A DNA stretch of 64,000 bases from Bombyx mori (Eukaryota > Arthropoda > Insecta > Lepidoptera > Bombycidae). Both the position numbers and the translations under genes were made by a program. Below, piece after piece: positions 17,156 to 64,000 of the stretch. The DNA lies in contig NC_085112.1 of assembly GCF_030269925.1 (NCBI RefSeq), positions 3,101,501 to 3,165,500 of the forward strand. The letters are read 5' to 3'. The notes under the pieces were generated by a model that saw only the letters and a list, made by a program, of their open reading frames with translations, was not told the DNA's origin and did not search any database. How positions within the stretch are numbered: the first letter of the stretch is position 1; the number at the start of each line of letters is the position of its first letter.

Positions 17156-20100
17156 TCATAGGTCGAAAGGTTTGGAGAAGTGGACTCTGCGACCTGACTG
17201 GGTGGTATATTGAGGTGTATGTGTAGGAGTAGCAGTTAGAGGTGCCGAAGGCACGAGTGGACATGAAGGGACATTAGTAGCATCCGGTTGCGCTGGTTGA
17301 GGCACAGAAACCCGCGGTGCTGGTGCTGGAACGAGATCTACTAAAGAATGCTCGACGAAAGCTGGCTTAATTCTGTCGACACTGACCGTCACCTGTTTCC
17401 CTTTTACATCAATCGACCACGTTTTTCCGTCCTCGGCTCTAGATATAACTCTATGAGGACCAGAGTAAGGTGGTTGCATTGAACGTCTAACCGAATCCTC
17501 CCTGAGCATGACATGAGAGGCGGTGGAAAGATTTTTAAATATGAAAGGTGATGGTTTAGTGTGTGAGGAACATGGAGTGGGACGCAATTTAGACATACGC
17601 TGTCTTAACTTTACGACAAAATCCGTCGGGTCCTCGAAACCAGAAGGACCGGGAGGTACTAACAGTTCCCCTGGAAGCGTTAATGTTTCTCCGTAAAGCA
17701 ATTCCGCTACTGTTGCTTGTAGATCTTCTTTAAAAGCCGAACGCATTCCTAATAAGACCAAAGGTAATGCATTCAACCACGAATCATCATAACACATCAG
17801 AGAGGCCTTTAATTGTCTATGCATGCGCTCCACGAGCCCATTGGCACAAGGGTGGTAACTAGTAGTGCGTATACGTTTAGTACCACATAAATTAGTAAGG
17901 CGTCTGAAAAGGTCCGACTCGAACTGTCGTCCCTGGTCGGTAGTGATGACAGCAGGTACTCCGAATCGAGCAATCCAACCGGCTACAAAGGTGCTCGCCA
18001 CTTCTTCTGCTGTTATTCCGTGCATAGGCCAAACTTCGGGCCATCGAGTGTAGCGATCCACAGCAGTCAGGCAGTATTGGAAGTCAGAACAAGATGGAAG
18101 AGGGCCTATGATGTCAATATGGACATGCTTCAGTCGAGACGTAGGACTGGAGAAGTGTCCAAGTGGAGATTTTATATGCCGCGTCACCTTACTTCGCTGG
18201 CAAGCAACGCAGGTTTGGCACCAATAACGGCAATCTTTGGCAATGCCAGGCCACACGAAACGGTCTGAGATCAATCGAATGGTTGATCTAGTACCAGGAT
18301 GGCTAAGATTATGTAGCTGAGCAAAAATCTTCTTTCGCATAGGTTCCGATACAAATGGGCGTGGTCGCCCTGTTGACATGTCGCAGACCAAAACAGTGTT
18401 TGTGCCAGGAACTACGACGTTCTCTAGTTTTAGAGAAGAATTCGCATCGTTACGATACTTTTTCAATTCGTCGTCAAGTTTTTGGCAAGCGGAGAGAGCA
18501 GAATGGTCAGTTTCAAAACTAACAGCTTCGATGCGGGACATGGCGTCCGCCACCGTATTGTCCTCCCCTTTTATATGGACAATGTCCGTGGTAAACTGCG
18601 AAATAAAAGACAGTTGATTTAACTGTACCGGAGGAAGCCTTTCGCGACGTTGCGAGAACGCATAAACTAATGGCTTATGGTCCGAATAAATCGTTACGTG
18701 CTGTGCGGCTAAGAAGTGTCGATAATGTTGCACACTCTCATATACCGCAAAAAGTTCTCGGTAGTATGCTGGCCACTGGCACTGTCGGGGATTCAGCTTT
18801 TTACTAAAGAAACCCAGGGGTTGCCAAGCATCACCGACTTTCTGCTGAAGGCAGGCACCAACGTGAGAACTGGAAGCGTCGGTGAAAAGCCCTAGTTCAG
18901 CGTTAGGCAAAGGGTGTGCCAACAGAGCTGCAGATGACAAGCTATCCTTACAGGCATTAAAGCATTCTTCGAGCTCAGGTGTCCAAGTGATCGGTGTGAG
19001 ACCTTTACCTCCAGTGGCCACGATCGCGTTGACTAGCGGTGCTTGTAACTTGGCCGCATTGCGCAGAAATCGGCGATAATAATTAACCATCCCAATGAAA
19101 CGACGGAGTCCTTGTACAGTCTGTGGTAGAGGAAAATCTTTTAGAGCTTGAATGCGCTCTGATGGTGGTTGTGTTCCGTCGGCAGATATTCTGTTTCCGA
19201 GAAAAGTAACTTCAGGAGCACCAAACACGCATTTTGCTGGATTTATAACGATTCCGTAATCTTCAAATCGCTTGAAAAGAGTACGAAGGTGTGCAGCATG
19301 TTGAAGAGCATCACGGGAATACACTAATATGTCGTCAACGTACGCAAAGCAAAAATCGAGACCTTGGACAACTTCGTCTATAAATCTTTGAAACGTTTGG
19401 CCTGCGTTGCGCAGACCAAAAGTCATGTAATTAAATTCGTAGAGTCCGAAGGGTGTTATGATGGCGGTTTTACAGATATCCTCAGGCGCAACAGGAATTT
19501 GCTGATATGCCTTAACGAGGTCGATGGTACTAAATATACTACACCCAGATATGTTATGGCCGACGTCACCGATATGGCGAACTGGGTACCTGTCGGGTAT
19601 GGTACGTGAATTCAAAGCACGATAATCGCCGCAGGGTCGCCAGGTGCCATCGCGCTTAGGGACCATATGAAGTGGAGAAGACCACGAACTTTTCGAAGGT
19701 CTGGCTGTCCCGCACTGTACCATATCATCAAAAACCTTTTTGGCCTCTTGAAGTTTTTGAGGTGCCAGACGTCTAGGACGACAAGAGACTGGGGCGCCCT
19801 CAGTGGTTAGAATATAATGAACTGTATTATGCTTCGGCTCACGAATAAGTCCTGGTGGCTTCGTAATGGACGGAAATTCCGCAAGAAGTGCACTAAATTG
19901 GGATGACGGAGCGCAGACAACTTTGACGCTGGTCTGGTCTAAAACAGCGACGGCAGCTACGCATGACAACCCGGTAATACTATCGACAAGTCTCTTACTG
20001 GCACAATCGGGCAACAACCGATAGTGCGCCAGAAAATCGGAGCCGATGATTGCGGTGTTGACGTCGGCGATAATGAATCGCCATTGAAATATGCGGCGTA

Positions 20101-20380
20101 GCCCCAAATTAAGCGCCATTTGTATGTGACCAAAAGTGCGTATCTCACTACCATTGGCAGCCGCTAATGTATAATTTGAACGTATCGGCTTATTTGATAA
20201 CCACTGATATGGATAACAGGAGAGGTCAGAGCCTGTGTCTATTAAAAAACGGCGCTTGGTTGAGCTTTCGGTGACAAATAATCGGCGACTCTCCTTTAAG
20301 CAGTCAGACGTCGCCATCATTGACTGCTTTTGTCGTTTTCCGAAGGTGGCGGCGGCGTCCAGGTACATGGTTGAATACAC
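17156..20380 (-). CDS. pol: Gypsy Pol polyprotein (protease, RT, RNase H, integrase)
   Basis: 1074 residues, intact. Domains in order: retropepsin with active site DTGS at about 48-51; reverse transcriptase with [15 protein letters not shown] near 283-297 and the YVDD catalytic box at 347-350; RNase H with FTDASS near 499-504 and SDHKPL near 566-571; integrase zinc finger (two His, two Cys) at about 690-727; integrase core D756, D815 and E851, with 35 residues between the last two. The C-terminal tail is Pro-rich. It overlaps gag by 64 bp in the -1 frame, so it is probably made as a Gag-Pol fusion by frameshifting. The first Met is therefore only the start of the open frame. It copies the element RNA into DNA and integrates it. 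No disabling change is visible. Confidence 0.93.
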
Positions 20381-21255
20381 TTAACAGCTTTAGTATTAAA
20401 TTTCCTATGGTAAAAGCACATTTGAGGCTTACCAGGTGTTTGTGAGCGTCGTCGCTGATTTGAGAAATCCCGGGTCCTATTTCTACCGCGCTCTGCAGTA
20501 AGCACAGCAAGCTGACGCGTGACCTCATCCAGACGCCGTGTGATATCTTCTAACGAAGGGGGTGAGACGGCAGACGTGCTTGCTGAGAAAACAGCAGATG
20601 AATGAGGTGCGAACATACCAGGCGAAACTTCCAAAATTTTGTCCGCTAGCTCAGCGACTTTGTCCAGCGAGAGTTCTGATTGGGCGGCCAAAATTGCTTG
20701 GAGATGTTGTGGGAGGCGACGCATCCATAGCTGGCGAAGCAAATTTTCATCAGTGAGGGTGTTTCCTGCCAATGATCTAAGATGACGTAAAAACTGCGAA
20801 GGACGGCGGTCACCCAACTCAACATCACTGACAAGTTGCCTGACACGTTGCTCCTCAGACGTGGACAACCTACGGATCAACTCGGATTTGAGGCGACCAT
20901 ATTTGTCCTCTGGTGGTGGTTGGAGAATAATGTCTTCTACCTCCCCAATAACTCGGGTATCTAACTGAGCAATCACGTAGTTAAATTTAGTCAGGTCAGC
21001 GGAGATGCCCGAAATCGAGAATTGTGCCTCTACCTGAGCAAACCAAATTGCAGGCCGATCAGGCCAGAAGGGAGGAAGTTTTATGGCTACTGTGCATACT
21101 GAGGTAGGTTGAGGAAATAATGGCTCTGTGGGGGGTGGGTCCGTTTTATCGACGCATTGCATTTTAAATTTTTGTAACTCAGCCTTTAGGATGGCATTTT
21201 GTTGTTGTAACAGCGTATTTTCTTCTCTTACTAATTGTTCGTTTGCCTCCATCAT
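20317..21255 (-). CDS. gag: Gypsy Gag structural protein
   Basis: 312 residues. The N-terminus (about 1-35) is a Leu/Gln-rich coiled coil. The middle has the usual retrotransposon Gag capsid features ([20 protein letters not shown] near 59, RQLWMRRLP near 175). Near the C-terminus is a zinc knuckle variant, Cys-x2-His-x9-Cys-x3-Cys, of the type seen in many insect Gypsy elements, for RNA binding. The start is the first of two adjacent Met codons, about 855 bp after the 5' LTR. Its last 64 bp overlap pol. No clear canonical slippery heptamer is seen; G GAA AAC shortly before the stop is the nearest candidate. Confidence 0.9.
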
Positions 21256-21894
21256 TGAACTTTACGTATACAATTGTAAAAAAAAAAAAACTAAGCATTT
21301 ATACAATTTAACAACTTAAAAAAATAATAATAATAATAAGTAAAGAAGAAAATGAAAATTAATGATTATGGTAAAAGATGGCAAAATACTGACAATAAGA
21401 GGCACAGTAAAACAATGAAATAAAATTATAGTAAACAAGAAAATAGAAATTAATTAAATACAGATGTGATGATAACACCGACTTACATTTCGTGACTATT
21501 TACTTTATAGCATTCATGTAGATAAAACCTAAAACTGTAATTATTTTGCCTCGTAAAAACAAATATTTCCTTACTACTAATCGTACAATAATACCTTAAT
21601 ATTATTATTAATTACAATGTTATACTATGAATTGGTGGAGCAATGAAGGCCCGTTAACAAAATATGAATAACTATTGTTACAAAAGGAACCTTTAAATTA
21701 AATTAAAATTTTGTTTTTCTTGTTTTTTTATGTCGACAAAGACCAAGCTGTTACTTATGCAATTATGTAACAAAATTAAAGTTACAGTATAGGCGGAGAA
21801 TATGAAGAAGTATTAAGATTAAAATAAAATAAAAAATATAAAACACTTCACCGAGTTAATCAGAAAACACAAAAAAAAAAAAAAGTTCCATGTT
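21256..21894 (-). other. AT-rich Gypsy 5' leader
   Basis: Untranslated leader between the tandem repeats and gag. Contains A-runs and an (AAT)n run near 21322-21338. No open frame of note. Confidence 0.6.
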
Positions 21895-22567: not shown

Positions 22568-24073
22568 CGGTAATTTATTAATCAGGTTAGGAATGCCAGC
22601 ACCATATCGTGAAATGAATGACGCATTTAATCGATAATTGGAAAGGGAACGTGAATATGATCACCAGGAATTAAATTTAGTAGTTCAAACGAATGTACCC
22701 CTGTTGAATTACCAACAAAAGGAAGTTTATGATACTTTAATGAAGGCAATCGATGATGAAAATGGTGGTTTATATTTCCTAGATGCCCCTGGTGGAACTG
22801 GCAAGACATTCCTCATGTCATTAGTTTTAGCAACTGTTCGGGCGAGATTTAACATAGCGGTTGCAGTTGCTTCTTCTGGAATAGCAGCCACATTGTTAGA
22901 AGGATGCCGTACGGCTCATTCAGCATTCAAATTATCGTTAAATCTTCAAACTATTGAAGAACCAACGTGTAATATTGCAAAACACTCAGCAATGGCCAAA
23001 GTTTTAGCGGTATCGAAAATCATCATCTGGGACGAATGCACAATGGCGCATAAACGTGCATTAAAAGCACTTAACCGAACATTAAAAGATTTACGCAATG
23101 ACTCGAGATGTTTTGGAGGAGCAATGATTTTACTTTCTGGCGATTTCCGCCAAATACTGCCAGTAATTTCAAGATCTAAGTACGGCTGCCGACGAAATAA
23201 ACGCTTGCCTCAAATCGTCAAATCTATGGCGCCATGTGAAGAAACTGCAACTGACAACAAACATGAGAGTTACATTGCTTAATGATACATCTGCTGAAGA
23301 TTTCTCGGAGCAATTGCTGACTATCGGTAATGGTCAAGTACCTGTCGATGAATCGAGCGGATTAATATCATTTCCAAATAATTTCTGTAATTTTGTCTCA
23401 TCAAAAGACGAACTTATCAACAATGTATTTCCAGAAATTATTTCTAACTACAAAAATTATGAATGGATGAGTGAGCGAGCAATTTTAGCGGCTAAGAATA
23501 AAGATGTAGATGACCTAAACTACATAATTCAAAATAAGATCATTGGAACAATGCATTCATTCAAATCTATTGACTGCGTCACAAATGAAGATGAAGCCAC
23601 CAAACTATCCAATTGAATTTTTAAACTCTTTGGACGTGCCTGGCTTACCACCGCACAATTTACGCCTAAAGGTTGGCTCCGTAGTAATCATGCTTCGAAA
23701 CATAAACCAACCAAAACTGTGCAACGGTACGCGTTTGGTTAGAAAATTGATGAACAATGTAATTTACGCTACGATAATGATAGGAAAATTCAAAGGTGAG
23801 GAAGTTCTCATTCCGAGGATACCGATGATCCCAACCGATATGCCGTTTGAATTTAAAAGACTTCAATTTCCGATACGTCTTGCATTTGCCATGACCATCA
23901 ACAAATCACAAGGCCAATCCTTAAAAGTTTGTGGTTTAAATCTAGAACATTCATGTTTTTCCCATGGTCAATTATACGTGGTATGTTCACGGGTCGGAAG
24001 ACCATCTGCGTTGTTTGTTTTTGCGCCTGATAATAAAACAAAAAATGTCGTGTATCACAAGGTACTTAAATGA
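22568..24073 (+). pseudogene. Helitron helicase (Pif1-like), broken
   Basis: This is the C-terminal helicase part of the Helitron Rep/helicase protein. Visible: Walker A GGTGKT (residue about 51 from 22638), Walker B IIWDEC, SGDFRQILPV, then [19 protein letters not shown] and the C-terminal TINKSQGQS and YVVCSRV motifs of Pif1 helicases. Three breaks are clear: an in-frame TAA at 22635-22637, a frame change near 23185, and another near 23600. The N-terminal zinc finger and HUH Rep nuclease are missing. It once unwound DNA for rolling-circle transposition and is not functional now. Confidence 0.88.
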
Positions 24074-25622: not shown

Positions 25623-26929
25623 CCTAGTCAGGTCATAAATTCTGTGACATGTTTAATGTAAAATAATTGAAACAAGTTTATTCATTATGTAACCATTCAT
25701 ATACCAAAATGAACTTAACAAAACATAGATTCTTATGACACTAAAGTTTATTCAAAATGACCTCCGTGATTTTGAATACAGGCCTTCAATCTGCGCGGCC
25801 AGTCGTCTATCGCAGCACGAACGAGGTCCATGTCAATATCGGCGGCTGCCTTAATCAAGGATGTCTTCAGTGACTACAAATTGGGATGAGGCTTTGAGCA
25901 CGCTTTTTCCTCCAAGTGTTGCCATATCTTGTAATCTAACGGATTCAAATCTGGACTGGAGGAGGGCCAGTTTTCGTGCCGGATGAAGTCGATTTCACGC
26001 GCCGCCAGCCAGTCTTGTGTGCTCTTCGCTCTATAAGCTGGCGCCGAATCTTGTTGGAATACCCAATGCCCGTTATTGAACATGGTATGAGAAACAGGTT
26101 CCACAAGGTTCATCAGGACTGTATTTTGATACACAACTGTATTCGTTTTTACACCTTTCTCACAAAAATGTACCTCTGTTAAGCCCCAATAAGAAACTCC
26201 CAACCATACCATGAGCGAGGATGGAAAATGACCTCGTTGGACACGCGGAATACGGTTGCTCGCTTCTTCACTGCTGTGTGCGTACACCTTATCATTTTGT
26301 ATGTTGTAGCTCTCTTCTACGGTAAAAATTTTTTCATCCGAAAAAAGAATTTCCCGATATTTTTTTCTCGCGTACCGCTTCAACAAAGCGCGGCATCTCT
26401 TCAGTCTCAGGTCCATTAGACGAGCATTCAAACGATGTCCTGTTTTTCTTCGATATGCCCGAAGCCCTAAGTCTTCATTTAACACCCTTTTCACCGTGGT
26501 TCTGCTTAACCCCATCTGAAGGGCCAACAGTTTCTGCTTACGTTTGGGATTTCTTTGAATTCGCGCCTTCACAGCTTTTATCACTGCTGGAGTCCTAACA
26601 GACCGAGGGCGACCACTTCTTGACCTGTCATCTACACTAGAGTCTTCATTCTATCGTTTGATGGTACGACAAACGAATCTTTTGGTTATATTCAAATTGT
26701 TCAGAATGTAAAAAATTTGAATTGGCGCGTAACCGCAACGATGCAACGCAATAACTGCAACACGGTCTTCTTTAAGCGTCCACTCCATATTTAAAAATGA
26801 GTAAAATTCTAAAAGTATACATTTTTATTTTCATGAACAATTCGAAATTCGAATTCAATAAACTTTTTTGTGGCCAGCATTCTAAAAGAAAAGTTTTTAC
26901 TGTGTGACAATACTTATGACCTGACTAGT
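25623..26929 (-). mobile_element. maT-clade mariner, full length
   Basis: A 1307-bp element flanked by TA on both sides (25621-25622 and 26930-26931). The terminal repeats begin CTAGTCAGGTCATAA and stay similar for about 27 bp. It encodes one transposase. A second copy's end is at bases 1-54. A separate LTR element begins 6 bp beyond the right end. Confidence 0.88.
25748..26788 (-). pseudogene. maT transposase with two amber stops
   Basis: A 346-codon frame from ATG at 26788 to TAA at 25748, with the same frame throughout. It begins MEWTLKEDRVAVIALHRCG (helix-turn-helix DNA-binding region). Catalytic residues are present: D in ILFSDEKIF, D in WVFQQDSAP, and D in SPDLNPLDY, with 37 residues between the last two. 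This DD37D spacing marks the maT clade and separates it from classic DD34D mariners. Two TAG codons interrupt it, at 26651-26653 (codon 46) and 25874-25876 (codon 305). No frameshift is seen, so it decayed only recently or could be read through. Confidence 0.88.
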
Positions 26930-41337: not shown

Positions 41338-43398
41338 ATTGAAGGATTACTGGTGGCCCGGAGGCCTTTCCAGTTTCACCAGGACAGGTGGGCGAGCAAA
41401 GGCTCAGCCAGGAGGGGTGGGATTTGCTAACAGCTACCCGAGCGCCTCCGAAGGAGACCTAACAGCTCAAGAGCAGCTGCTTCGCGAATGAATCTACTAC
41501 CGGATCGGAATCGCGACCCGCTGAGAAGATCCGGCGAGAAACTCAGCGAGCTGATTCATGGGTTAGGTTGCACGGCGAACTCTTTGTCGAGTTCGACGAG
41601 TACGGTTACCGAGGTCCCTAAGCCTGCTCCTAGAGCTGAAGGCGTCTAGTGCGAAGGTTATTGGATCTGATGGATCCGTAAGGACGTGTCTAGGGCGTCG
41701 ACGGTGACTGGCTCCTGCATGATCAGGATTCGGGGAGTAGTCAGCGGCGGCTACGATAAGGCGATTATCATGACGCATAGCCTTATCGAAGTACCGTTCC
41801 GACGCTGACTTCATGTATTTCTGTATAGATTCGAGGCCCAGGTCGTCGTGTAGGTCAATGTTCCTCACGAACCACGGAGCTCCGACGGCTAACCTGCAAA
41901 AGCGGGATTGTAGAGATTGAAGGGTGTCTATGTGCGTGCGGGCCGCGTGAGCGAACACCACACTCGCGTAAGTCATGACGGGCCTTATGCAAGTTTTGTA
42001 AAGTGTCACCTTGTTCCGAAGGGACATTTTACTCCGCTTACAAATCATGGGGTAGAGTCTACCGAGAATAAACGCGGCACGGTCACGGACTGATTTTATA
42101 TGCGGGCGGAATGTCATCGATGCATCCAGGGTAACGCCCAGGTACTTGACCTTCCTGGCCCAGGGTATGGATTGACTAAAGAGAGTAATCGGGGGTGTGA
42201 GATTCCTCCTCCTAATACGGGAGGAAATCCGTGTGGAGCTTCCCCTCTGAAAGAGCACCGCAGTACTTTTCGCTGGGTTGATGTCTATGCGCCATTTTCG
42301 GAACCACTGTCCTAGGGCTAGGGCTGCGCTCTGAAGCTTCTTCGCGATTAGGGACTTGTTTCTACTGGAATAGTAAACAGTCGTGTCGTCGGCGAATAAA
42401 GCTAAATGGGTCGGCGGCGACCGGGGAATATCGTTAACGAATAAGCTAAATAGGAGGGGTGAGAGGACAGAGCCTTGCGGGACTCCAGCTGTGAGAGGTC
42501 GTAGGGAGGAGCGGGTTCCCTCGACTCGATATCGAAAAGAGCGGTTCGACAAGAAGTCCCGTATGATGAGCACGAGACTATCCGGCACACCCATGTTGAA
42601 TAGTTTGAAAATCAAACCGTTGTGCCAGACTTTGTCGAACGCTTTTGCGACGTCGAAGAAGAGAGCTCCCGTGTATAACGGTTTTGGTCGATTAAGCCCC
42701 ACAAGAATGTGCTCCGTGAGGCGGTGCACCTGTTGAACGCATGAGTGATTTGTACGGAATCCGAATTGTTCATCGATGAGAATGCCCTTGGATGAGACGA
42801 AGTCTCTGAGGCGTTTGTAGAGCAGACGCTCATACAGTTTGCCTAGAGACATGAGGAGGCTAATCGGGCGGTAGCTCGTCGGATGATTTTTTGGTTTACC
42901 GGGTTTATGTATGCCGATAACGTCCGCTTCTTTCCACACCGCGGGAAAGATACAGTTCGCCATAGCGGCATTGAAAATAGATGCCAACATCACGATGAGT
43001 TGGACGGGTAGAAGTTTAATAACGCGGTTGGATATACCGTCGGAACCGGGAGCCTTGCGAGGACGTAGGTCTTTGATCAAGTCTTTAACTTCCATCGGGG
43101 TGACGGGTGGTAACACATCAGAGGGTGGCAAGGAGGCTCTGCGTTCTACCTCACTGTCTACTAATTCTACATGCACAGGGTCCACGGATTGAGTGCTGGG
43201 CGTGCACTGGGTTTGCAATGTATCGGCCAGCAGCTCTGCTTTTTCGTCATCATCGAACGCCGTGAGTCGGCCTGAGGGGCCTACGAGGGGGGGCATAGTT
43301 ACTACCGTATCCGATTTGAGAGTACGAGCTAAGCGGTAGTAAGACCTTTGGGAGGGCGCGAGTCCTTCTAAGAAATCAGACCATCTGGCATTTCGGAC
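41305..43398 (-). mobile_element. Jockey-clade LINE, 5'-truncated, with 11-bp target duplication
   Basis: A 2094-bp insertion with a poly(A) tail (plus-strand T-run at 41305-41334). Flanked by TTAAGGGTTCC at 41294-41304 and 43399-43409. Its tail defines family 2 (other copies at 13.8, 29.1 and 33.9 kb). ORF1, the endonuclease and the start of the RT are missing. Confidence 0.93.
41563..43398 (-). CDS. Jockey LINE reverse transcriptase, N-terminally truncated
   Basis: The frame is open from the truncation point (43398) to the TGA at 41563, 611 codons. The first Met is at 43296, but the frame before it (NARWSDFLEGLAPSQRSYYR) is also coding. RT motifs in order: RKAPGSDGISNRVIKLLP, HKPGKPKNHPTSYRPISLL, FFDVAKAFDKVWHNGL, GVPQGSVLSPLLFSLFVNDI, the catalytic FADD in LALFADDTTVYYSS, and KVKYLGVTLD. 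The C-terminal region (CKRSKMSLRNKVTLYKT, RHDNRLIVAAA) is typical of Jockey elements. The copy has no stop codon inside but lacks the endonuclease, so it cannot move alone. Confidence 0.9.
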   Translation of the reverse strand, partial: VRNARWSDFLEGLAPSQRSYYRLARTLKSDTVVTMPPLVGPSGRLTAFDDDEKAELLADTLQTQCTPSTQSVDPVHVELVDSEVERRASLPPSDVLPPVTPMEVKDLIKDLRPRKAPGSDGISNRVIKLLPVQLIVMLASIFNAAMANCIFPAVWKEADVIGIHKPGKPKNHPTSYRPISLLMSLGKLYERLLYKRLRDFVSSKGILIDEQFGFRTNHSCVQQVHRLTEHILVGLNRPKPLYTGALFFDVAKAFDKVWHNGLIFKLFNMGVPDSLVLIIRDFLSNRSFRYRVEGTRSSLRPLTAGVPQGSVLSPLLFSLFVNDIPRSPPTHLALFADDTTVYYSSRNKSLIAKKLQSAALALGQWFRKWRIDINPAKSTAVLFQRGSSTRISSRIRRRNLTPPITLFSQSIPWARKVKYLGVTLDASMTFRPHIKSVRDRAAFILGRLYPMICKRSKMSLRNKVTLYKTCIRPVMTYASVVFAHAARTHIDTLQSLQSRFCRLAVGAPWFVRNIDLHDDLGLESIQKYMKSASERYFDKAMRHDNRLIVAAADYSPNPDHAGASHRRRPRHVLTDPSDPITFALDAFSSRSRLRDLGNRTRRTRQRVRRAT

Positions 43399-54102: not shown

Positions 54103-55382
54103 TTCGTTTTATAGTTATAGGAACAATATACTTTGATTATGATTGGTTTTTCATCAATAGTATTAATGAATCCACTTTTATTGCTTACGAAAAATAGACA
54201 AGCCTATCTTGTGGTTACCACATCCCATTGACTTTGAAACTTGAATGTCAAAACACACTTCTATGTTTGAGACTAAAGCTCGTTATTATAATTAGGAAGC
54301 TTGCTATCAAACGTGTTATAGAAGTAGCTTCAGGTAGTTTTTGTAAAATTATGTTTGAATTGATATTTAATGAAGAGACAATATGGCCCCTGCCTATGCA
54401 ATGCTAAGTCAGATTCCCATAATCAAAACGGAAAAATATTATAATTGCTATATATTTCTGGAAGTAGAGTTAATAGCGCTGATATTTAGTGGTTACCGGT
54501 ATTATTAGTTCATAAACTATGCAGAGTGAATGCTGCCACCCAGCCCTAAGACTCTTGAGTCGAAGTTTCAATATTGTTTGACAACTCTCTAACTTATTGT
54601 GGCATAATTGGGCTTGTTGATACTTACTCCTGCAGTCTCATAATATTCTCCACCAGCAGGTAAGTTCGAAATAATTATAGAAAAATTGTAATCTTTTCTT
54701 GAAAAGACAGTAAATGTCCTACGCTAAATAAACTTATTATCAAGACATTGAAAATTTTTCAGTTTGGCATCTCCCAAAAAGATATTCGTGGAAAGCATTT
54801 TAAAAGGTTAATTTGGAAACTAATTAAAATCTAACTTAACGAAATTATTGTGATATATAAATATAATGTCGAATATAATTAAATTTTATTCCTCAAAGTA
54901 CACACATTGTCTCAAGTTTTGGTGTCCTTATCACTTATATATTTGAAACTTTTGAGTTTTAAAACAACCATGGTGCCATTTTTTTTAAACTTTTAACTGA
55001 ATCAAAAACAAAAGTATTAGGTATTATTTTTAGTTATTTTTTTTTTTTGTAAAAGAAATAAAATTTGTATCTGTTTTTTTATAAATAAAGAAAACAAAAG
55101 CTTTGTTTATTTATTACCCTAATAAAGAAATTCGGAACGCTTCGTCTATTTATTTACCTTTTTTCCCCGATTCCCCTCAATCCTACCCAGCAATCAATTA
55201 TATGACTGCATTTTTGTCGTGATTTGCATATGCTCTCTTAAGCCTTAAAAAATAACAATATTTATTCATTAGGCCGTTAAGAAAGCATTTGCGTCATAAA
55301 TAAAATTAGTTTAAAAACAATACAGAAACCTGTGTTTTATTCCCAAGGGCAAAGGTATTAATGATCTGGTTATACCCTACAG
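54103..55382. other. AT-rich DNA before the FLYWCH exons
   Basis: No known repeat or gene. The last part would be intron or upstream DNA of the first FLYWCH exon. It contains a branch-point-like TATTAATGAT about 25 bp before the acceptor. Confidence 0.45.
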
Positions 55383-55675
55383 TTCCCGCGCAATTTATCC
55401 CAGGAAGAACGGGCGCCGGACTCCTGATATTAAACGGTTTCACTTTCTACATGAAGAATCACCAGGCGTACGGGAAGAAGCAGTGGTATTGTTCGTCTAG
55501 GGACGTCCACGGGTGCCGCGCTGACGTCATCACTTGCAAAGGTGCCGATGGAAGAGATTATATTTCCATATTCCGCGGGAGGCATATCCACGATCCCCCC
55601 CGCTTAAGGCAATGTCACGACGGTAGATTTATAAGGGAAAAAGATTTTGTAATAGGCAGACATTATACTAAGTGA
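55383..55675 (+). CDS. mod(mdg4): FLYWCH 3' exon, probable mod(mdg4) isoform end
   Basis: The coding frame after a good acceptor (ACCCTACAG at 55374-55382) runs to TGA at 55675, about 97 residues. It encodes one FLYWCH zinc finger: QFIPGRTGAGLLILNGFTFY, then QWYC, seven residues, Cys, and finally HIH in RGRHIHDPP. These are the W-x-C, Cys and H-x-H zinc ligands. In insects, single FLYWCH domains as last exons are the hallmark of mod(mdg4), a BTB chromatin and insulator protein whose isoforms differ only in this C-terminus and are partly made by trans-splicing. The exon begins with two bases (TT) completing a codon. GC content is above its surroundings. The nearest poly(A)-signal-like hexamer is ATTAAA near 55911. 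The common BTB exons are not in the window, so the gene name is inference. Confidence 0.75.
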
Positions 55676-56060
55676 TTTATATCGTTTGTGAATCTAAAAT
55701 CATGTGATGTACTTATACAAATGTGACTTGAGCCTGTTTCTGATGTAGGGACCTGCTAGTTTATTAGTTTTAATTTATAAGGATAAGTTATGTAGATTTA
55801 TAAAAAAACAAAAAATATATAAAAAAAAGAATCGACTAATGATTGTAGCTTTTATTTTACATTTGTTGAATATAGCCAAACGCAATCTACCCATTCTGAA
55901 GTATTGTATTAAAGATTAATTTTATTAGTTTCATTTTATTTAATTTAAAGCTTAGCGGGTATTTAAAAAAAAAAAAAGTAATTCTGTTCTGTTGGATACT
56001 GTTGTAACCGTTTTTTTTTTTTTGTAATGTACACATAATGATGCCTGAGCTCGGTTTCAG
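55676..56060. other. Spacer between the two FLYWCH exons
   Basis: 385 bp, AT-rich, with the likely 3' UTR of the first exon and a T-rich tract (56012-56023) before the next acceptor. Confidence 0.55.
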
Positions 56061-56290
56061 ATATATACTATTTGCCGTCGCACCGGACCGGTAGCATGGT
56101 GCTGATTTACAAAGAGAACAAGTACTGGATAAACAATCGTTATCAGAACACTATAAATTGGACGTGCAGAGATCGCAAGAGGATCGGCTGCACGAGCTGC
56201 GTGCAGACCACGATCGAAGGACGTTACATCAAGCACAAGGGGTTCCACAATCACGACGACAATTACACCAAATACAATTTCGATAAATGA
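56061..56290 (+). CDS. mod(mdg4): Second FLYWCH 3' exon, probable mod(mdg4) isoform end
   Basis: Acceptor CTCGGTTTCAG ends at 56060, after a 12-T tract. The exon runs to TGA at 56290, about 75 residues. FLYWCH ligands: W-T-C in NWTCRDRKRIGC (seven residues between the Cys), then H-N-H in KGFHNHDD. There is no ATG before LPSHRTGSMVLIYKENKYW, so translation must enter by splicing. Its first two bases (AT) complete a codon, the same phase as the exon at 55383. It is a different, shorter finger than its neighbour, as expected for alternative C-termini that give different DNA or protein targets. Naming is by domain and layout only. Confidence 0.75.
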
Positions 56291-59493: not shown

Positions 59494-59775
59494 TCAGAAT
59501 TTCCTATCAAGTTTTGATGAATTATCAGCACATACTTCTTGCCAGGTCTTTAACTTGGCATCGCGATCTTTATATAACACGTGGCCTTTGTCCCAGAGCG
59601 GTTCACGAAGACGAGCTTCGGTGATTAGGCGCTCGGTGTCGATATATTTGGCCACGTTCAATACGAAATCGCTTTTTCTGATGATGATACCCACATCCGT
59701 ACGGTCGGTCCACCTATCGGTGCAGCACTGAACGCGTTCATTTGTTTCCATAGCGCGTCGGTAGACCGACGGCAC
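59494..59775 (-). pseudogene. MADF/Myb-like DNA-binding protein fragment
   Basis: 93 residues: IDTERLITEARLREPLWDKG, then HVLYKDRDAKLKTWQEVCAD. This is the first half of a MADF domain (a Myb-like helix-turn-helix). Harbinger elements encode such a protein to help the transposase bind DNA. The rest of the domain is missing. The start is uncertain (Met 1 or Met 9), and the upstream side is cut by the hAT insertion. Confidence 0.65.
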
Positions 59776-59785
59776 GCATGCGGAC

Positions 59786-60720: not shown

Positions 60721-61448
60721 GGATTGCCTTACATCGCTCATACCTTAGCTTCGAGTATCAACTCGTTATGAGATGGTGATAGCATTCCTTGAACGGTGTG
60801 ATTTTTTAATTTAAGCGCCATCTAGAATCGAACGACGAAACTTCGAAGTAGCTCGTTAATAATGCATTCGAGCGATAGATGGCGTTGATTATACTACATT
60901 CTGCCTATGTACGTACCTAATGTTTGGATCCTTCATTAACTATTAAGGTTTAATATACATATGAATTGAAATATTCGAATTTCGTTTGTTTTGTAGTGCT
61001 GAATAATTGGACTTTCCAGAATTTTCGAATTTCCTAGTCAGTGCATTGTTTATAGAAAAGTATGTGCCAAACTCTTCAATTTATAATTTTATTATAGTGT
61101 AATAAAATCGGATACGTAAAATTCTCAAATAAATTATTGAATATAATGGTACGTTTTTTTTTGTTGTTGTTGCTCAATTATAAAATGTATTAAAAGACAT
61201 TCTGAACGATTGCATTAATTTAATATATAGGTTCAATTATTTGCAAGGTGTCGAATGAAGTCTAGGTAAGTGTACAATCGTTGCTATTAGAACGGTGACC
61301 GAAACCGAATGTTTTTCAAAAACCATAATAGTACTAAAAGATCTCAAACGTTTTAGTGCTTATGGTGAAAGGGCGTAACGGAAAAAACTTACTAATGCTC
61401 AACGGTTACACGTATTACCAACACAAAGTAATCTGCCAAGTATCTGTA
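60721..61448. other. AT-rich stretch before the LINE
   Basis: No gene seen. It may include the site into which the LINE inserted. Confidence 0.45.
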
Positions 61449-61568
61449 ATCATTTTAAAATAAATTACAATAAAATATGTAAGGAAAATTTACGAAGTTG
61501 CCGGTAATCTGACCGGCAACTTCGTAAATTTTCCTTACATATTTTATTGTAATTTATTTTAAAATGAT
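61449..61568. repeat. Perfect 57-bp inverted repeat at the LINE start
   Basis: Arm 61449-61505 is the exact reverse complement of 61512-61568, with a 6-bp loop (AATCTG). The first two ATG codons of ORF1 (61564 and 61567) lie at the outer end of the right arm. Either the element's 5' end was copied back on itself during insertion, or the hairpin is a real part of the leader. Confidence 0.97.
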
Positions 61569-63210
61569 GACTCGCAGCATCAAATCTCGTCAGGTTGATG
61601 AACAGCTTCGTATTGCTTTAGAACAATTAAAAAATACTCGCGAAAAATATGATATACTTTTACAAGAAAGTGAACAAAATGAAGAGGAGATGCTGTCAGT
61701 CATCTCTAAGAATACTGACCTTAAAAAACAATTGTCTCAGCTCTTCATTGAACACAGTGAAGCTCTTGAGATCAATCAGAAGTTGCAGGATACGATTAAC
61801 ACCTTTTCTCAATGCAGTGATGAATTTTGTGATTCATTGAAAATCACTGCTGAGTTGAGACATAAATTGGCTGAGGCTGATGATTGTATTTCTGACTTGC
61901 GGTCAGAGTTATGTAAACTTAAGGAACAGCAGCCTCAGAGCTTATATTCGGAACTGGTTCAGAGCGAACCCTCTTTGGTTGCTGTAGATACTGCCTTGAA
62001 TTTTGACATAACTACTATTGATCTGACTGGTAGTGATGCAGAGACCTCAGAGCGCTCCCAGTTAGTTTTAAGTAAAAATAAACTTAGGAAATATGTTAAA
62101 ATTAATAAATTAATATATAAGACTCAACGGAAATTGAGGAATTACAAGTCTCAGGAATACATCAAGTTCATTTGCAAGCAGAGAACTTCACTTTCACACC
62201 AGGTAGCTGTATTGACTGAACAGAGTCAACAAATTCATCACAAACACATGGAAGAAATAGAATGTTTATCTACACAAATAAACAATTTAAAGTCAAGTTT
62301 AGAGAACATTACATTAAACTATGAACTAGCACAGAGGGACATTAGTGAGCATGTGTTGGCAATGGACAATTTAATTGATACTTGTAATTATAATCAACAG
62401 CGTTTTGACTCTTTGACAATGCAGTACGCTGAATGTAAATGCTCTGCATCGGGTTGTCAGGAGCTACCACATGTTGAAATTCAAAAACATAATGTGTCTA
62501 TTCTTTCAGTGCTAGAGTCTCAAAGCAATGATATTATGAGGGCAGCACCTATCTGTCTACCTACTACTGCATCTTCACAAGTTTCTAGAGAAGACAAAAT
62601 TAAAATAAAAATTTTTAGTGATGAGCTGGGGAAACAAATGGGTGTGGCATTACATGACCTTTGTTTTGGACAACATGTGATTAATTACTGTATGCCAGGT
62701 GCTAATCCAGAACAAATATTTGATAAGATTTTAAATACCACACATTGTCTAAACACAGTCATAATAATTATGTTAGGGAGGAGAGAAAACGTTAACCAAA
62801 AACAAATTTTGCATTATGTTGAACAAGTTAATATGTTAAATATTAAAAAAATTATTATGTTCACCTTTCCTTACTTGCAGGACTTGCCGACAGAAAATAA
62901 AATTAGATTTAATATTAATAATGCAATTTATAATGCTTTTGACAATAATAACTGCATCTTGACATCCAAAAAATATGCATTTAAATTAATAGACTTAAAT
63001 AATATAATAAAATTTAGATATTTAAGGACATCAAAAAATGAAATATTTAAATTAACGAATAAAAATTTTAGACAAGTAGCAACATCGCTACACTATTTTA
63101 TACACAATTTCCTAGCTATAAATTTAGCTAAAAAAATACCTGCTTCTATTGAGCAGGAAAAAGATATGACATGTTATAAGACTTTGGAATCTGCTTCCAA
63201 TTTAAATTAA
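61564..63210 (+). CDS. Non-LTR retrotransposon ORF1 protein
   Basis: 548 residues, intact. Residues about 5-125 are a long coiled coil, and there is a second around 205-270. After about residue 350 comes an SGNH/GDSL-hydrolase-like fold: KIKIFSDELGKQMG (block I), YCMPGANPEQIFDKI (block II) and NTVIIIMLGRRENV (block III, G..N). Esterase-like ORF1 domains are known in CR1-group LINEs. Here the C-terminal Asp-x-x-His block is not evident, so activity is doubtful. ORF1 proteins bind element RNA and act as chaperones. The start is one of two ATGs in the hairpin. The gene ends AAT TTA AAT TAA, with the slippery TTTAAAT just before the stop. Confidence 0.8.
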   Translation: MMTRSIKSRQVDEQLRIALEQLKNTREKYDILLQESEQNEEEMLSVISKNTDLKKQLSQLFIEHSEALEINQKLQDTINTFSQCSDEFCDSLKITAELRHKLAEADDCISDLRSELCKLKEQQPQSLYSELVQSEPSLVAVDTALNFDITTIDLTGSDAETSERSQLVLSKNKLRKYVKINKLIYKTQRKLRNYKSQEYIKFICKQRTSLSHQVAVLTEQSQQIHHKHMEEIECLSTQINNLKSSLENITLNYELAQRDISEHVLAMDNLIDTCNYNQQRFDSLTMQYAECKCSASGCQELPHVEIQKHNVSILSVLESQSNDIMRAAPICLPTTASSQVSREDKIKIKIFSDELGKQMGVALHDLCFGQHVINYCMPGANPEQIFDKILNTTHCLNTVIIIMLGRRENVNQKQILHYVEQVNMLNIKKIIMFTFPYLQDLPTENKIRFNINNAIYNAFDNNNCILTSKKYAFKLIDLNNIIKFRYLRTSKNEIFKLTNKNFRQVATSLHYFIHNFLAINLAKKIPASIEQEKDMTCYKTLESASNLN

Positions 63211-64000
63211 TTAGTAAGACAAAGGAGTCACACTCTTGCAATTACAAATCAATTAATACACCAACTAGATTATACCCATCAAAAGACGTTAACGTTTCAA
63301 TTATTAACATATTCAATTTGGTGCATCAAAATTTACAAGGGATGATGGGTAAAGAGCTAGAAATTGAAATGTTTTTAAATATGCATAATATTAATGTATT
63401 CTGTGTCACTGAGCACTGGTTTAGAAACTATGAATTATTGTTTAATTTTAATGATCACCAGTTGTCAAGTTCCTTCTGCAGAGAGAACGCTATTCGCGGT
63501 GGCTCACTGATTCTCGTTAGTAAATGTTTGAAATGTAAGGAACGAAAGGATGTAGTGGCCCTCTCTGTTGAGAGAATTATTGAAATTTCCTGTGTTGAGC
63601 TTGAGCACCTCATCGTTGTCTGCGTCTACAGACCTCCTGATGCGTTATATGATTCTTTTGAAAATATTTTGGAAAATGTATTGCTAAAGCTTTCTGTCTC
63701 TAATAAACAAATTTTGGTATGTGGTGATTTTAATATTAATCTTTTAGAAAACACAAATACCACTATTAGATTCAGAACACTGTTAAAGTCATATAACCTC
63801 CCAAACTTATTTTTAGAGCCTACTAGGACAACGACCACATCGGCAACATGTTTAGATAACATATTTACAAATGTAACACCGACTAACAAAAAAATTATTA
63901 ATCAGTTAACATCAGACCATAGTGGACAATTTCTGTCTTTTGAATCTAATATGAATCCTAAAGATAAAAATACTCTTGTGATTGTTCCTATTAATAAAAA
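63180..64000 (+). CDS. LINE ORF2, AP-endonuclease domain, runs off the window
   Basis: Open in the -1 frame relative to ORF1 from 63180 to the window edge, without a stop. APE-type endonuclease motifs: NLVHQNLQG (Asn), VTEHWF (catalytic Glu), VVCVYRPPDA, LVCGDFNINL (Asp and Asn), SATCLDNIFTN and SDHSGQF. This enzyme nicks the target for reverse transcription. RT should follow to the right. The first in-frame ATG (63342) lies after the conserved HQN Asn, so starting there would lose a catalytic residue. Entry by -1 frameshift from ORF1 fits better. The clade looks Rex/Daphne/CR1-like. Confidence 0.82.
63201..63243 (+). promoter_or_regulatory. Candidate -1 frameshift signal
   Basis: TTTAAAT at 63201-63207 fits X XXY YYZ in the ORF1 frame (aaT TTA AAT), immediately before the TAA at 63208-63210. 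A weak 6-bp stem-loop (AGGAGT, loop CAC, ACTCTT) follows at about 63223-63237. The slip moves the ribosome exactly into ORF2. Confidence 0.6.

What the first reader, a model, noticed from the sequence alone, without database searches (positions are those of the whole stretch)
55383..56290. Two alternative FLYWCH exons of mod(mdg4)
Both exons have an acceptor, no usable start codon at their beginning, a single complete FLYWCH finger, their own stop, and the same phase (two bases completing a codon). This is the layout of mod(mdg4) variable exons, which can be joined to common exons by trans-splicing. The common exons are not in the window, so they lie outside it, possibly on either strand.
Basis: partly seen in the sequence, partly recalled or inferred. 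Interest (0 to 1): 0.8.

Follow-up and report, generated by a model that had tools for sequence, protein, structure and literature searches.

The report
Opposite-strand mod(mdg4) alternative end exons
A moth genome, probably silkworm, carries two alternative zinc-finger end pieces of the gene mod(mdg4) on the DNA strand opposite to its shared front part and over 600,000 bases away, so a complete protein could only be made by joining two separate RNAs.

Summary
Window 55383-55675 and 56061-56290 (+) are single-FLYWCH terminal exons with their own stops and the same entry phase. They belong to an array of 177 detected FLYWCH exons, a lower bound, on both strands of C6:3.157-3.820 Mb (147, 30 more; at least 28 of the 30 also pass Pfam). 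The BTB common exons lie at C6:3,780,696-3,781,692, minus strand; their last donor leaves one G, so the partner must supply two bases. The best acceptor has that phase in 109 of 119 exons, against 30 of 118 in a control. The window exons are on the plus strand about 623 kb away, so cis-splicing to the common exons is impossible in this assembly; trans-splicing is inferred. Exon 1 is 49-52/54 identical in 17 other database proteins, and conservation starts exactly at base 55383. Paralogues of both exons follow the same BTB part in other Lepidoptera's protein models. No protein joining the orthologues of these two exons to BTB was found, and annotators model them as stand-alone genes. A third conserved FLYWCH exon at 61357 is split by a retrotransposon. 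This is a new member of a known kind; the repertoire size is the main surprise.

The parts
55369..55382 (+). 3' splice acceptor of exon 1 (ends CCTACAG)
   Evidence: sequence; boundary fixed by conservation starting at the next base in 17 other database proteins
55383..55675 (+). variable exon 1: one FLYWCH finger, own stop, entered with two bases completing a codon
   Evidence: Pfam FLYWCH E 4.1e-10; orthologues 49-52/54 identical; paralogue joined to BTB part as GDAQ|VPA
56047..56060 (+). 3' splice acceptor of exon 2 (ends GGTTTCAG)
   Evidence: sequence; phase fits the common donor
56061..56290 (+). variable exon 2: one FLYWCH finger, own stop, same entry phase
   Evidence: Pfam FLYWCH E 4.4e-10; orthologues 68/74 (Papilio), 66/74 (Pectinophora), 50/61 (Operophtera) identical
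61357..61429 (+). 5' half of a third variable exon, interrupted by a retrotransposon; its 3' half lies at C6:3167944-3168054, outside the window
   Evidence: local profile hits E 1.9e-5 and 8.9e-8 for model positions 2-22 and 24-59; the 3' half alone does not reach Pfam E 0.001; sequence; relative in Operophtera 22/24 and 41/50 identical for the two halves
61430..64000 (+). non-LTR retrotransposon inserted in the third exon (runs on beyond the window)
   Evidence: endonuclease/exonuclease/phosphatase domain in 63180-63998; the two exon halves lie about 5 kb apart

Best explanation
The two exons are alternative 3' terminal exons of mod(mdg4). They are probably transcribed from their own promoter(s) on the plus strand (inferred) and joined to the BTB common exons, transcribed about 623 kb away from the minus strand, by trans-splicing (inferred). 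The last common exon leaves one G; each acceptor supplies two bases. The products would be 377- and 356-residue proteins with one BTB domain and one FLYWCH finger, the finger presumably setting DNA or partner specificity. Shown: the exons, the exon 1 boundary, phase match, linkage, opposite strands, conservation, and BTB-joined paralogues in other species' models. Not shown: transcription, the junction itself, protein function.
For: FLYWCH in both. The only BTB hits near the array are C6:3781260-3781626 minus, encoding MASDEQFSLCWNNF...GDAQ with all three donors in the same phase. Best acceptor in the fitting phase in 109 of 119 exons; control inside the domain 30 of 118, control upstream of the in-frame stop 52 of 119. 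Fused exon 1 protein: the six best hits, 80-88% over 94-98%, are BTB-FLYWCH proteins whose tails are closest to exon 1 among the 119 exons compared. Tails of P0017, P0020 and P0079 are closest to exon 2 (37/73, 37/75, 38/73). Exon 1 orthologues 49-52/54 identical in 17 of 17 other proteins that hold that stretch. Close duplicate exons in the array have dN/dS 0.10-0.62 in 36 of 37 pairs, pairs not independent.
Against: No database protein was seen that joins the BTB part to the orthologue of exon 1 or 2. One search lists 120 of 3179 hits, where such a protein should rank first (inference); searches give 3 and 20 proteins, none with the BTB part. Annotators model them as separate genes, in 10 of 20 cases fusing exon 1 to exon 2 relatives. 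The exon 1 acceptor is not the best-scoring AG. No RNA data were available.
Confidence: 0.85

Rival explanations
1. Exons 1 and 2 (and 3) form an independent FLYWCH gene with its own start codon and no link to the BTB exons, as public annotations model them.
For: LOC106712925 (Papilio), LOC126370416 (Pectinophora), LOC111356134 (Spodoptera) and others are annotated as stand-alone proteins. P0127 and Spodoptera P0137 share the same upstream residues before VPAQF.
Against: Apart from that pair and short matches (LT, SS), the residues before V differ between proteins, whereas V onward is nearly invariant. An independent gene would not need each exon to carry its own stop and the phase of the BTB donor. 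Paralogues of both exons are BTB-joined elsewhere.
Confidence: 0.09
2. The exons are alternative ends of another donor, such as the second BTB gene at C6:8.85 Mb or BTB genes on C12.
For: Those loci also pair BTB with FLYWCH hits.
Against: They lie more than 5 Mb away or on another contig and have FLYWCH hits of their own nearby. The array runs from the window towards the 3.78 Mb BTB exons, whose donor phase fits. The other donors were not read, so their phase is untested.
Confidence: 0.03
3. Dead FLYWCH relics or transposon-borne domains.
For: The neighbourhood is rich in transposable elements and the third exon is split by one.
Against: 19 other proteins, 11 from named Lepidoptera, are 90-96% identical to exon 1 over 31-100% of it; frames are intact and dN/dS is below 1 in 36 of 37 close pairs of array exons.
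Confidence: 0.02

Closest known systems
Bombyx mori mod(mdg4) (Nat Commun 2015, PMC4667647: passages and section 8 read; its source Shao et al. 2012 not read)
   Same: Common 5' donor exons joined to FLYWCH 3' exons from either strand of the same chromosome; trans-splicing reported.
   Different: That paper gives 9 variable combinations for B. mori; here 177 FLYWCH exons were detected in the locus. Whether the two window exons are among the 9 could not be checked.
Danaus plexippus mod(mdg4) (PMC4667647, passages and section 8)
   Same: Acceptors on both strands over a 550 kb locus; [quoted passage not shown] Exon 1 orthologue KGM_208269 carries a number near that paper's acceptor genes DPOGS208282 and DPOGS208298 (inference from numbering; 208269 itself is not in the main text).
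   Different: 24 acceptor genes, 40 isoforms reported.
Drosophila mod(mdg4) (PMC12692577: start of abstract and passages; PMC11727487: passages)
   Same: BTB common exons plus alternative 3' exons on both strands; all isoforms said to be made by trans-splicing, 3' exons from independent promoters.
   Different: Just over 30 isoforms; four constitutive exons. Here three coding common exons were found.
tramtrack (name given to most of the 120 relatives listed)
   Same: BTB domain at the N-terminus.
   Different: Tramtrack proper carries C2H2 fingers (recalled); these carry FLYWCH, so the name looks like an annotation carry-over.

Membership tests
mod(mdg4) variable 3' exon | one FLYWCH finger with its own stop and no start codon before the finger | tested here: met
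   for the two exons; 112 of 118 array exons keep C-C-HxH. 23 of 118 array exons do have a Met in the first 10 codons.
mod(mdg4) variable 3' exon | acceptor phase fits the last common donor | tested here: met
   donor leaves G; both exons supply two bases; 109 of 119 array exons
mod(mdg4) locus | BTB common exons in the same locus | tested here: met
   C6:3780696-3781692 minus
mod(mdg4) locus | common part is mod(mdg4) by relationship | tested here: met
   relatives at 79-87% named modifier of mdg4 (Nymphalis io), mod(mdg4) (Epargyreus clarus) or mod(mdg4)-heS00531 (Aphomia sociella); most others listed are named tramtrack beta isoform. No direct comparison with the Drosophila protein was made.
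mod(mdg4) locus | variable exons on both strands | tested here: met
   51 plus, 126 minus: 27 and 120 as tallied, 24 and 6 added
mod(mdg4) isoform | mRNA joining the common exons to these exons | not testable with these tools
   no RNA data; no joined orthologue seen
mod(mdg4) isoform | made by trans-splicing of two pre-mRNAs | not testable with these tools
   opposite strands make it necessary if the isoform exists
tramtrack | BTB plus C2H2 fingers | tested here: not met
   the relative P0001 has BTB and FLYWCH and no C2H2 match at E up to 1

The most novel reading that the evidence does not exclude
Lepidopteran mod(mdg4) is a two-strand trans-splicing repertoire of well over 170 interchangeable FLYWCH ends, the largest known to me. 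About 50 of them, including an old conserved trio that begins in this window, lie opposite to the donor and can be expressed as mod(mdg4) only by trans-splicing; annotation pipelines that cannot join opposite strands may turn them into spurious stand-alone genes. Two near-perfect U1-binding sites early in the last common intron may recruit the donor for trans-splicing, as reported for Drosophila (Gao et al. 2015: title seen as a citation, content recalled).
Probability: 0.55. Interest if true: 0.65.

Novelty: new member of a known kind. Interest (0 to 1): 0.55.

Why it matters
mod(mdg4) is described as the one conserved case in which insects diversify protein function by trans-splicing (PMC4667647, abstract). 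A locus with 177 detected FLYWCH ends, versus the 9 combinations given there for B. mori and 40-41 for two other Lepidoptera, changes its scale. Exons opposite to the donor can be joined to it only by trans-splicing, so they make a clean test set, and the window's exons are conserved enough to test across the order. It may also explain a class of lepidopteran 'uncharacterized' gene models.

Tried and rejected
Donor-acceptor docking: 9- to 12-mers upstream of 118 acceptors that are complementary to the first 4.7 kb of the last common intron were somewhat commoner than in random genomic pieces (for 11-mers 5.5 against 4.2 per kb) but no commoner than same-sense matches (6.4), so no docking signal. 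Shared motif upstream of the acceptors: GTTATCT stands in 10 of 118 against 0.5 expected, but 6 of the 10 are near-duplicates of one family at 3468-3478 kb, so no motif is claimed. The AG at 55402-55403: better by a crude score, rejected by conservation. First reading of P0001-P0006 as orthologues of exon 1: rejected, they are paralogues (50/89 identical in P0001), because closer relatives are 91-96%. A homologue of the upstream residues of six database proteins in the 238.5 kb held: best tblastn E 0.012, on the minus strand, taken as chance. Place of the paralogues of exon 1, and of exon 2 relatives, in this genome: not completed. PDB: BTB chains among the 60 shown of 84; for the FLYWCH profile FLYWCH1 2rpr (E 1.1e-4), then mostly WRKY domains. 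Internal stops in my own exon set (0 of 118) are no evidence, because those exons were cut at the first stop; one search is the real check. In the 238.5 kb held without gaps one search had 26 exons and a local profile found 28 more, so 177 is a lower bound. Papers: searches listed no report of a lepidopteran array this large, judged from listings and the passages cited; a B. mori long-read paper (PMC8476886) does not hold the word mdg4 in its main text. Subscription papers are not held.

Full report
Check of the observation. The frames 55310-55675 and 56042-56290 each match Pfam FLYWCH (E 4.1e-10 and 4.4e-10) over nearly the whole model. Both frames end in their own stop. For exon 1 a second AG at 55402-55403, in the same phase, scores better by a simple pyrimidine-tract score; conservation decides for 55383 (below).

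The setting. The window is C6:3101501-3165500 of a 461.7 Mb assembly in 30 contigs. The size, and the BTB-FLYWCH hits on C12 that recall three published silkworm BTB-FLYWCH genes on chromosome 12 (PMC4033408, table passage), point to Bombyx; the species is inferred. Pfam FLYWCH gave 150 scored hits from 231 candidates, none with a stop inside. Of these 147 lie in C6:3.157-3.820 Mb, 27 plus and 120 minus. A profile built from the 91 exons I held found 30 more in the sequence held, giving 177, one of them split. Pfam confirms at least 28 of the 30: 17 of the 18 members of alignment A1, 17 of which are added exons, 10 of 10 and 2 of 3; the miss is the half exon. In the 238.5 kb held without gaps, one search had 26 and the local profile added 28, so the rest of the array, held only in pieces, probably has more. 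The window's two exons are the first of the array.

The donor. The only BTB hits near the array are C6:3781489-3781626 and 3781260-3781397, minus strand. The sequence there gives three coding exons, 3781482-3781692, 3780842-3781399 and 3780696-3780767, whose 280 residues begin MASDEQFSLCWNNF and end GDAQ, the last donor leaving one G. Of the 77 listed BTB hits five are on C6, and none is on the plus strand within 3.7 Mb of the window exons. A GTAAGT 147 bases further on, in an open frame, would leave T instead; 20 of 118 array exons would then begin with a stop codon, which speaks for the G donor. Relatives named modifier of mdg4 or mod(mdg4) match at 79-87%, though most of the 120 listed are named tramtrack, beta isoform.

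Phase. Of 121 exons found by the local profile 119 had enough flank (they include the half exon). The best acceptor has the fitting phase in 109 (45 of 49 plus, 64 of 70 minus). The same scoring inside the domain gives 30 of 118, and upstream of the in-frame stop 52 of 119. A first run on the 91 exons gave 84. Database proteins fix exon 1 independently. Of the 20 proteins, 18 hold its start, one being the window's own. The other 17 (9 from named Lepidoptera, 8 unnamed) are identical at 49-52 of 54 positions from V (base 55383) on, while the residues just before differ except for short matches and one pair, P0127 and P0137. P0131 begins at this position, so its upstream is unseen; P0123 and P0140 start inside the exon. 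The pair shares a phenylalanine before the junction, whose codon followed by G cannot be an AG acceptor in that frame. This hints at a spliced upstream exon belonging to the acceptor transcript; it is a hint only.

Conservation and neighbours. Exon 2 is 68/74 identical in Papilio, 66/74 in Pectinophora and 50/61 in Operophtera. In 10 of the 20 proteins the exon 1 relative is fused by gene prediction to an exon 2 relative (P0135 only in part), and P0123 (Operophtera) and P0140 (Manduca) go on to the relative of a third exon. That third exon is in this window too, at 61357-61429, with its other half at C6:3167944-3168054, about 5 kb further on; the halves are 22/24 and 41/50 identical to P0123. 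P0123 has one more finger in between, for which no close relative was found in the sequence held. So a trio of exons in fixed order is conserved, and its third member is broken in this assembly.

Joined relatives. With the common part plus exon 1 as query, 3179 proteins matched, 7986 candidates having been scored and 120 listed. The six best (P0001-P0006, 80-88% over 94-98%) carry tails closest to exon 1 (50/89 in P0001) and read GDAQ|VPA in Helicoverpa, Plodia and Hyposmocoma; the other three start a little differently. P0017, P0020 and P0079 carry tails closest to exon 2 (37/73, 37/75, 38/73). These are paralogues: closer relatives exist and are not joined to BTB in any protein seen. Most joined tails are only distantly related to the Bombyx exons I held; the exceptions are P0063 and P0096 (86/88 and 81/87 with 3283004 minus) and P0044 (51/59 with 3268611 minus), all same-strand exons. 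No listed protein joins BTB to a close relative of a plus-strand exon. That gene predictors cannot join opposite strands may be why; this is inference.

Evolution. A tree of 118 exons (80 columns, many forks unresolved, bootstrap not settled) needs 10 changes of strand, at least 4 forced by well-supported branches, against a shuffled mean of 37.4. Exons have therefore moved between strands several times while keeping frame and phase, as expected if either strand works. Thirty-seven close pairs, most from a few families and so not independent, have dN/dS 0.10-0.62, except one at 1.15 that rests on 4 synonymous and 18 other changes. Exon 1 groups with 3285034 plus and 3268611 minus (98/87).

Mechanism. 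Because donor and exons lie on opposite strands, a joined mRNA needs two transcripts. In Drosophila all mod(mdg4) mRNAs are reported to arise this way, with acceptors from independent promoters (PMC12692577, start of abstract) and with transcription stopped in the last common intron (PMC11727487, passages). The first 4.7 kb of the last common intron here has two 10-of-11 matches to the complement of the U1 5' end (sequence recalled), against a mean of 0.03 in 100 control windows, one of which has two or more; 7 of 100 simple shuffles have at least one. This is suggestive only. No complementarity between intron and acceptors beyond the same-sense control was found.

Limits. No RNA was examined. 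Of the 147 hits in the array, 56 were counted from coordinates without their sequence being read (91 read). The organism's name, tramtrack's C2H2 fingers and the content of Gao et al. 2015 are recalled or inferred. In checking this report I dropped one claim (0 internal stops in my own set, true by construction) and replaced it; the odds did not need changing.

Noticed in passing
61357-64000: Third FLYWCH variable exon split by a non-LTR retrotransposon (halves about 5 kb apart), with AAAGT at both junctions by my reading; unsplit relatives in Operophtera and Manduca models.
   Followed up: partly
C6:3544015, 3548235, 3551235, 3551902 (minus): A well-supported clade of four array exons that lack the HxH zinc ligands at the end of the finger.
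   Followed up: partly
L041 (last common intron, positions 196 and 1233 from the donor): Two near-perfect U1-binding-like sites; the first reads TTTCAG|GTATGT, like a recursive splice site.
   Followed up: partly
C6:3820106 (plus): A FLYWCH hit on the opposite strand beyond the donor (sequence not read), resembling in position the Danaus acceptor gene DPOGS208298 of PMC4667647.
   Followed up: no
59494-59784 (minus): Frame with a partial MADF domain (E 3e-5); gene or transposon piece not decided.
   Followed up: no
17156-43398: Transposable elements: DUF7041 frame beside a large retroelement polyprotein frame (17156-21261 minus), Pif1-like helicase pieces (22638-24073 plus), DDE transposase piece (25874-26650 minus), reverse transcriptase (41563-43398 minus).
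   Followed up: no
exon 1, near 55541: Gene models of six proteins (P0121, P0122, P0137-P0140) splice from an internal site near ITYK in exon 1 into exon 2; a combined two-exon isoform is possible but may be a prediction artefact.
   Followed up: no
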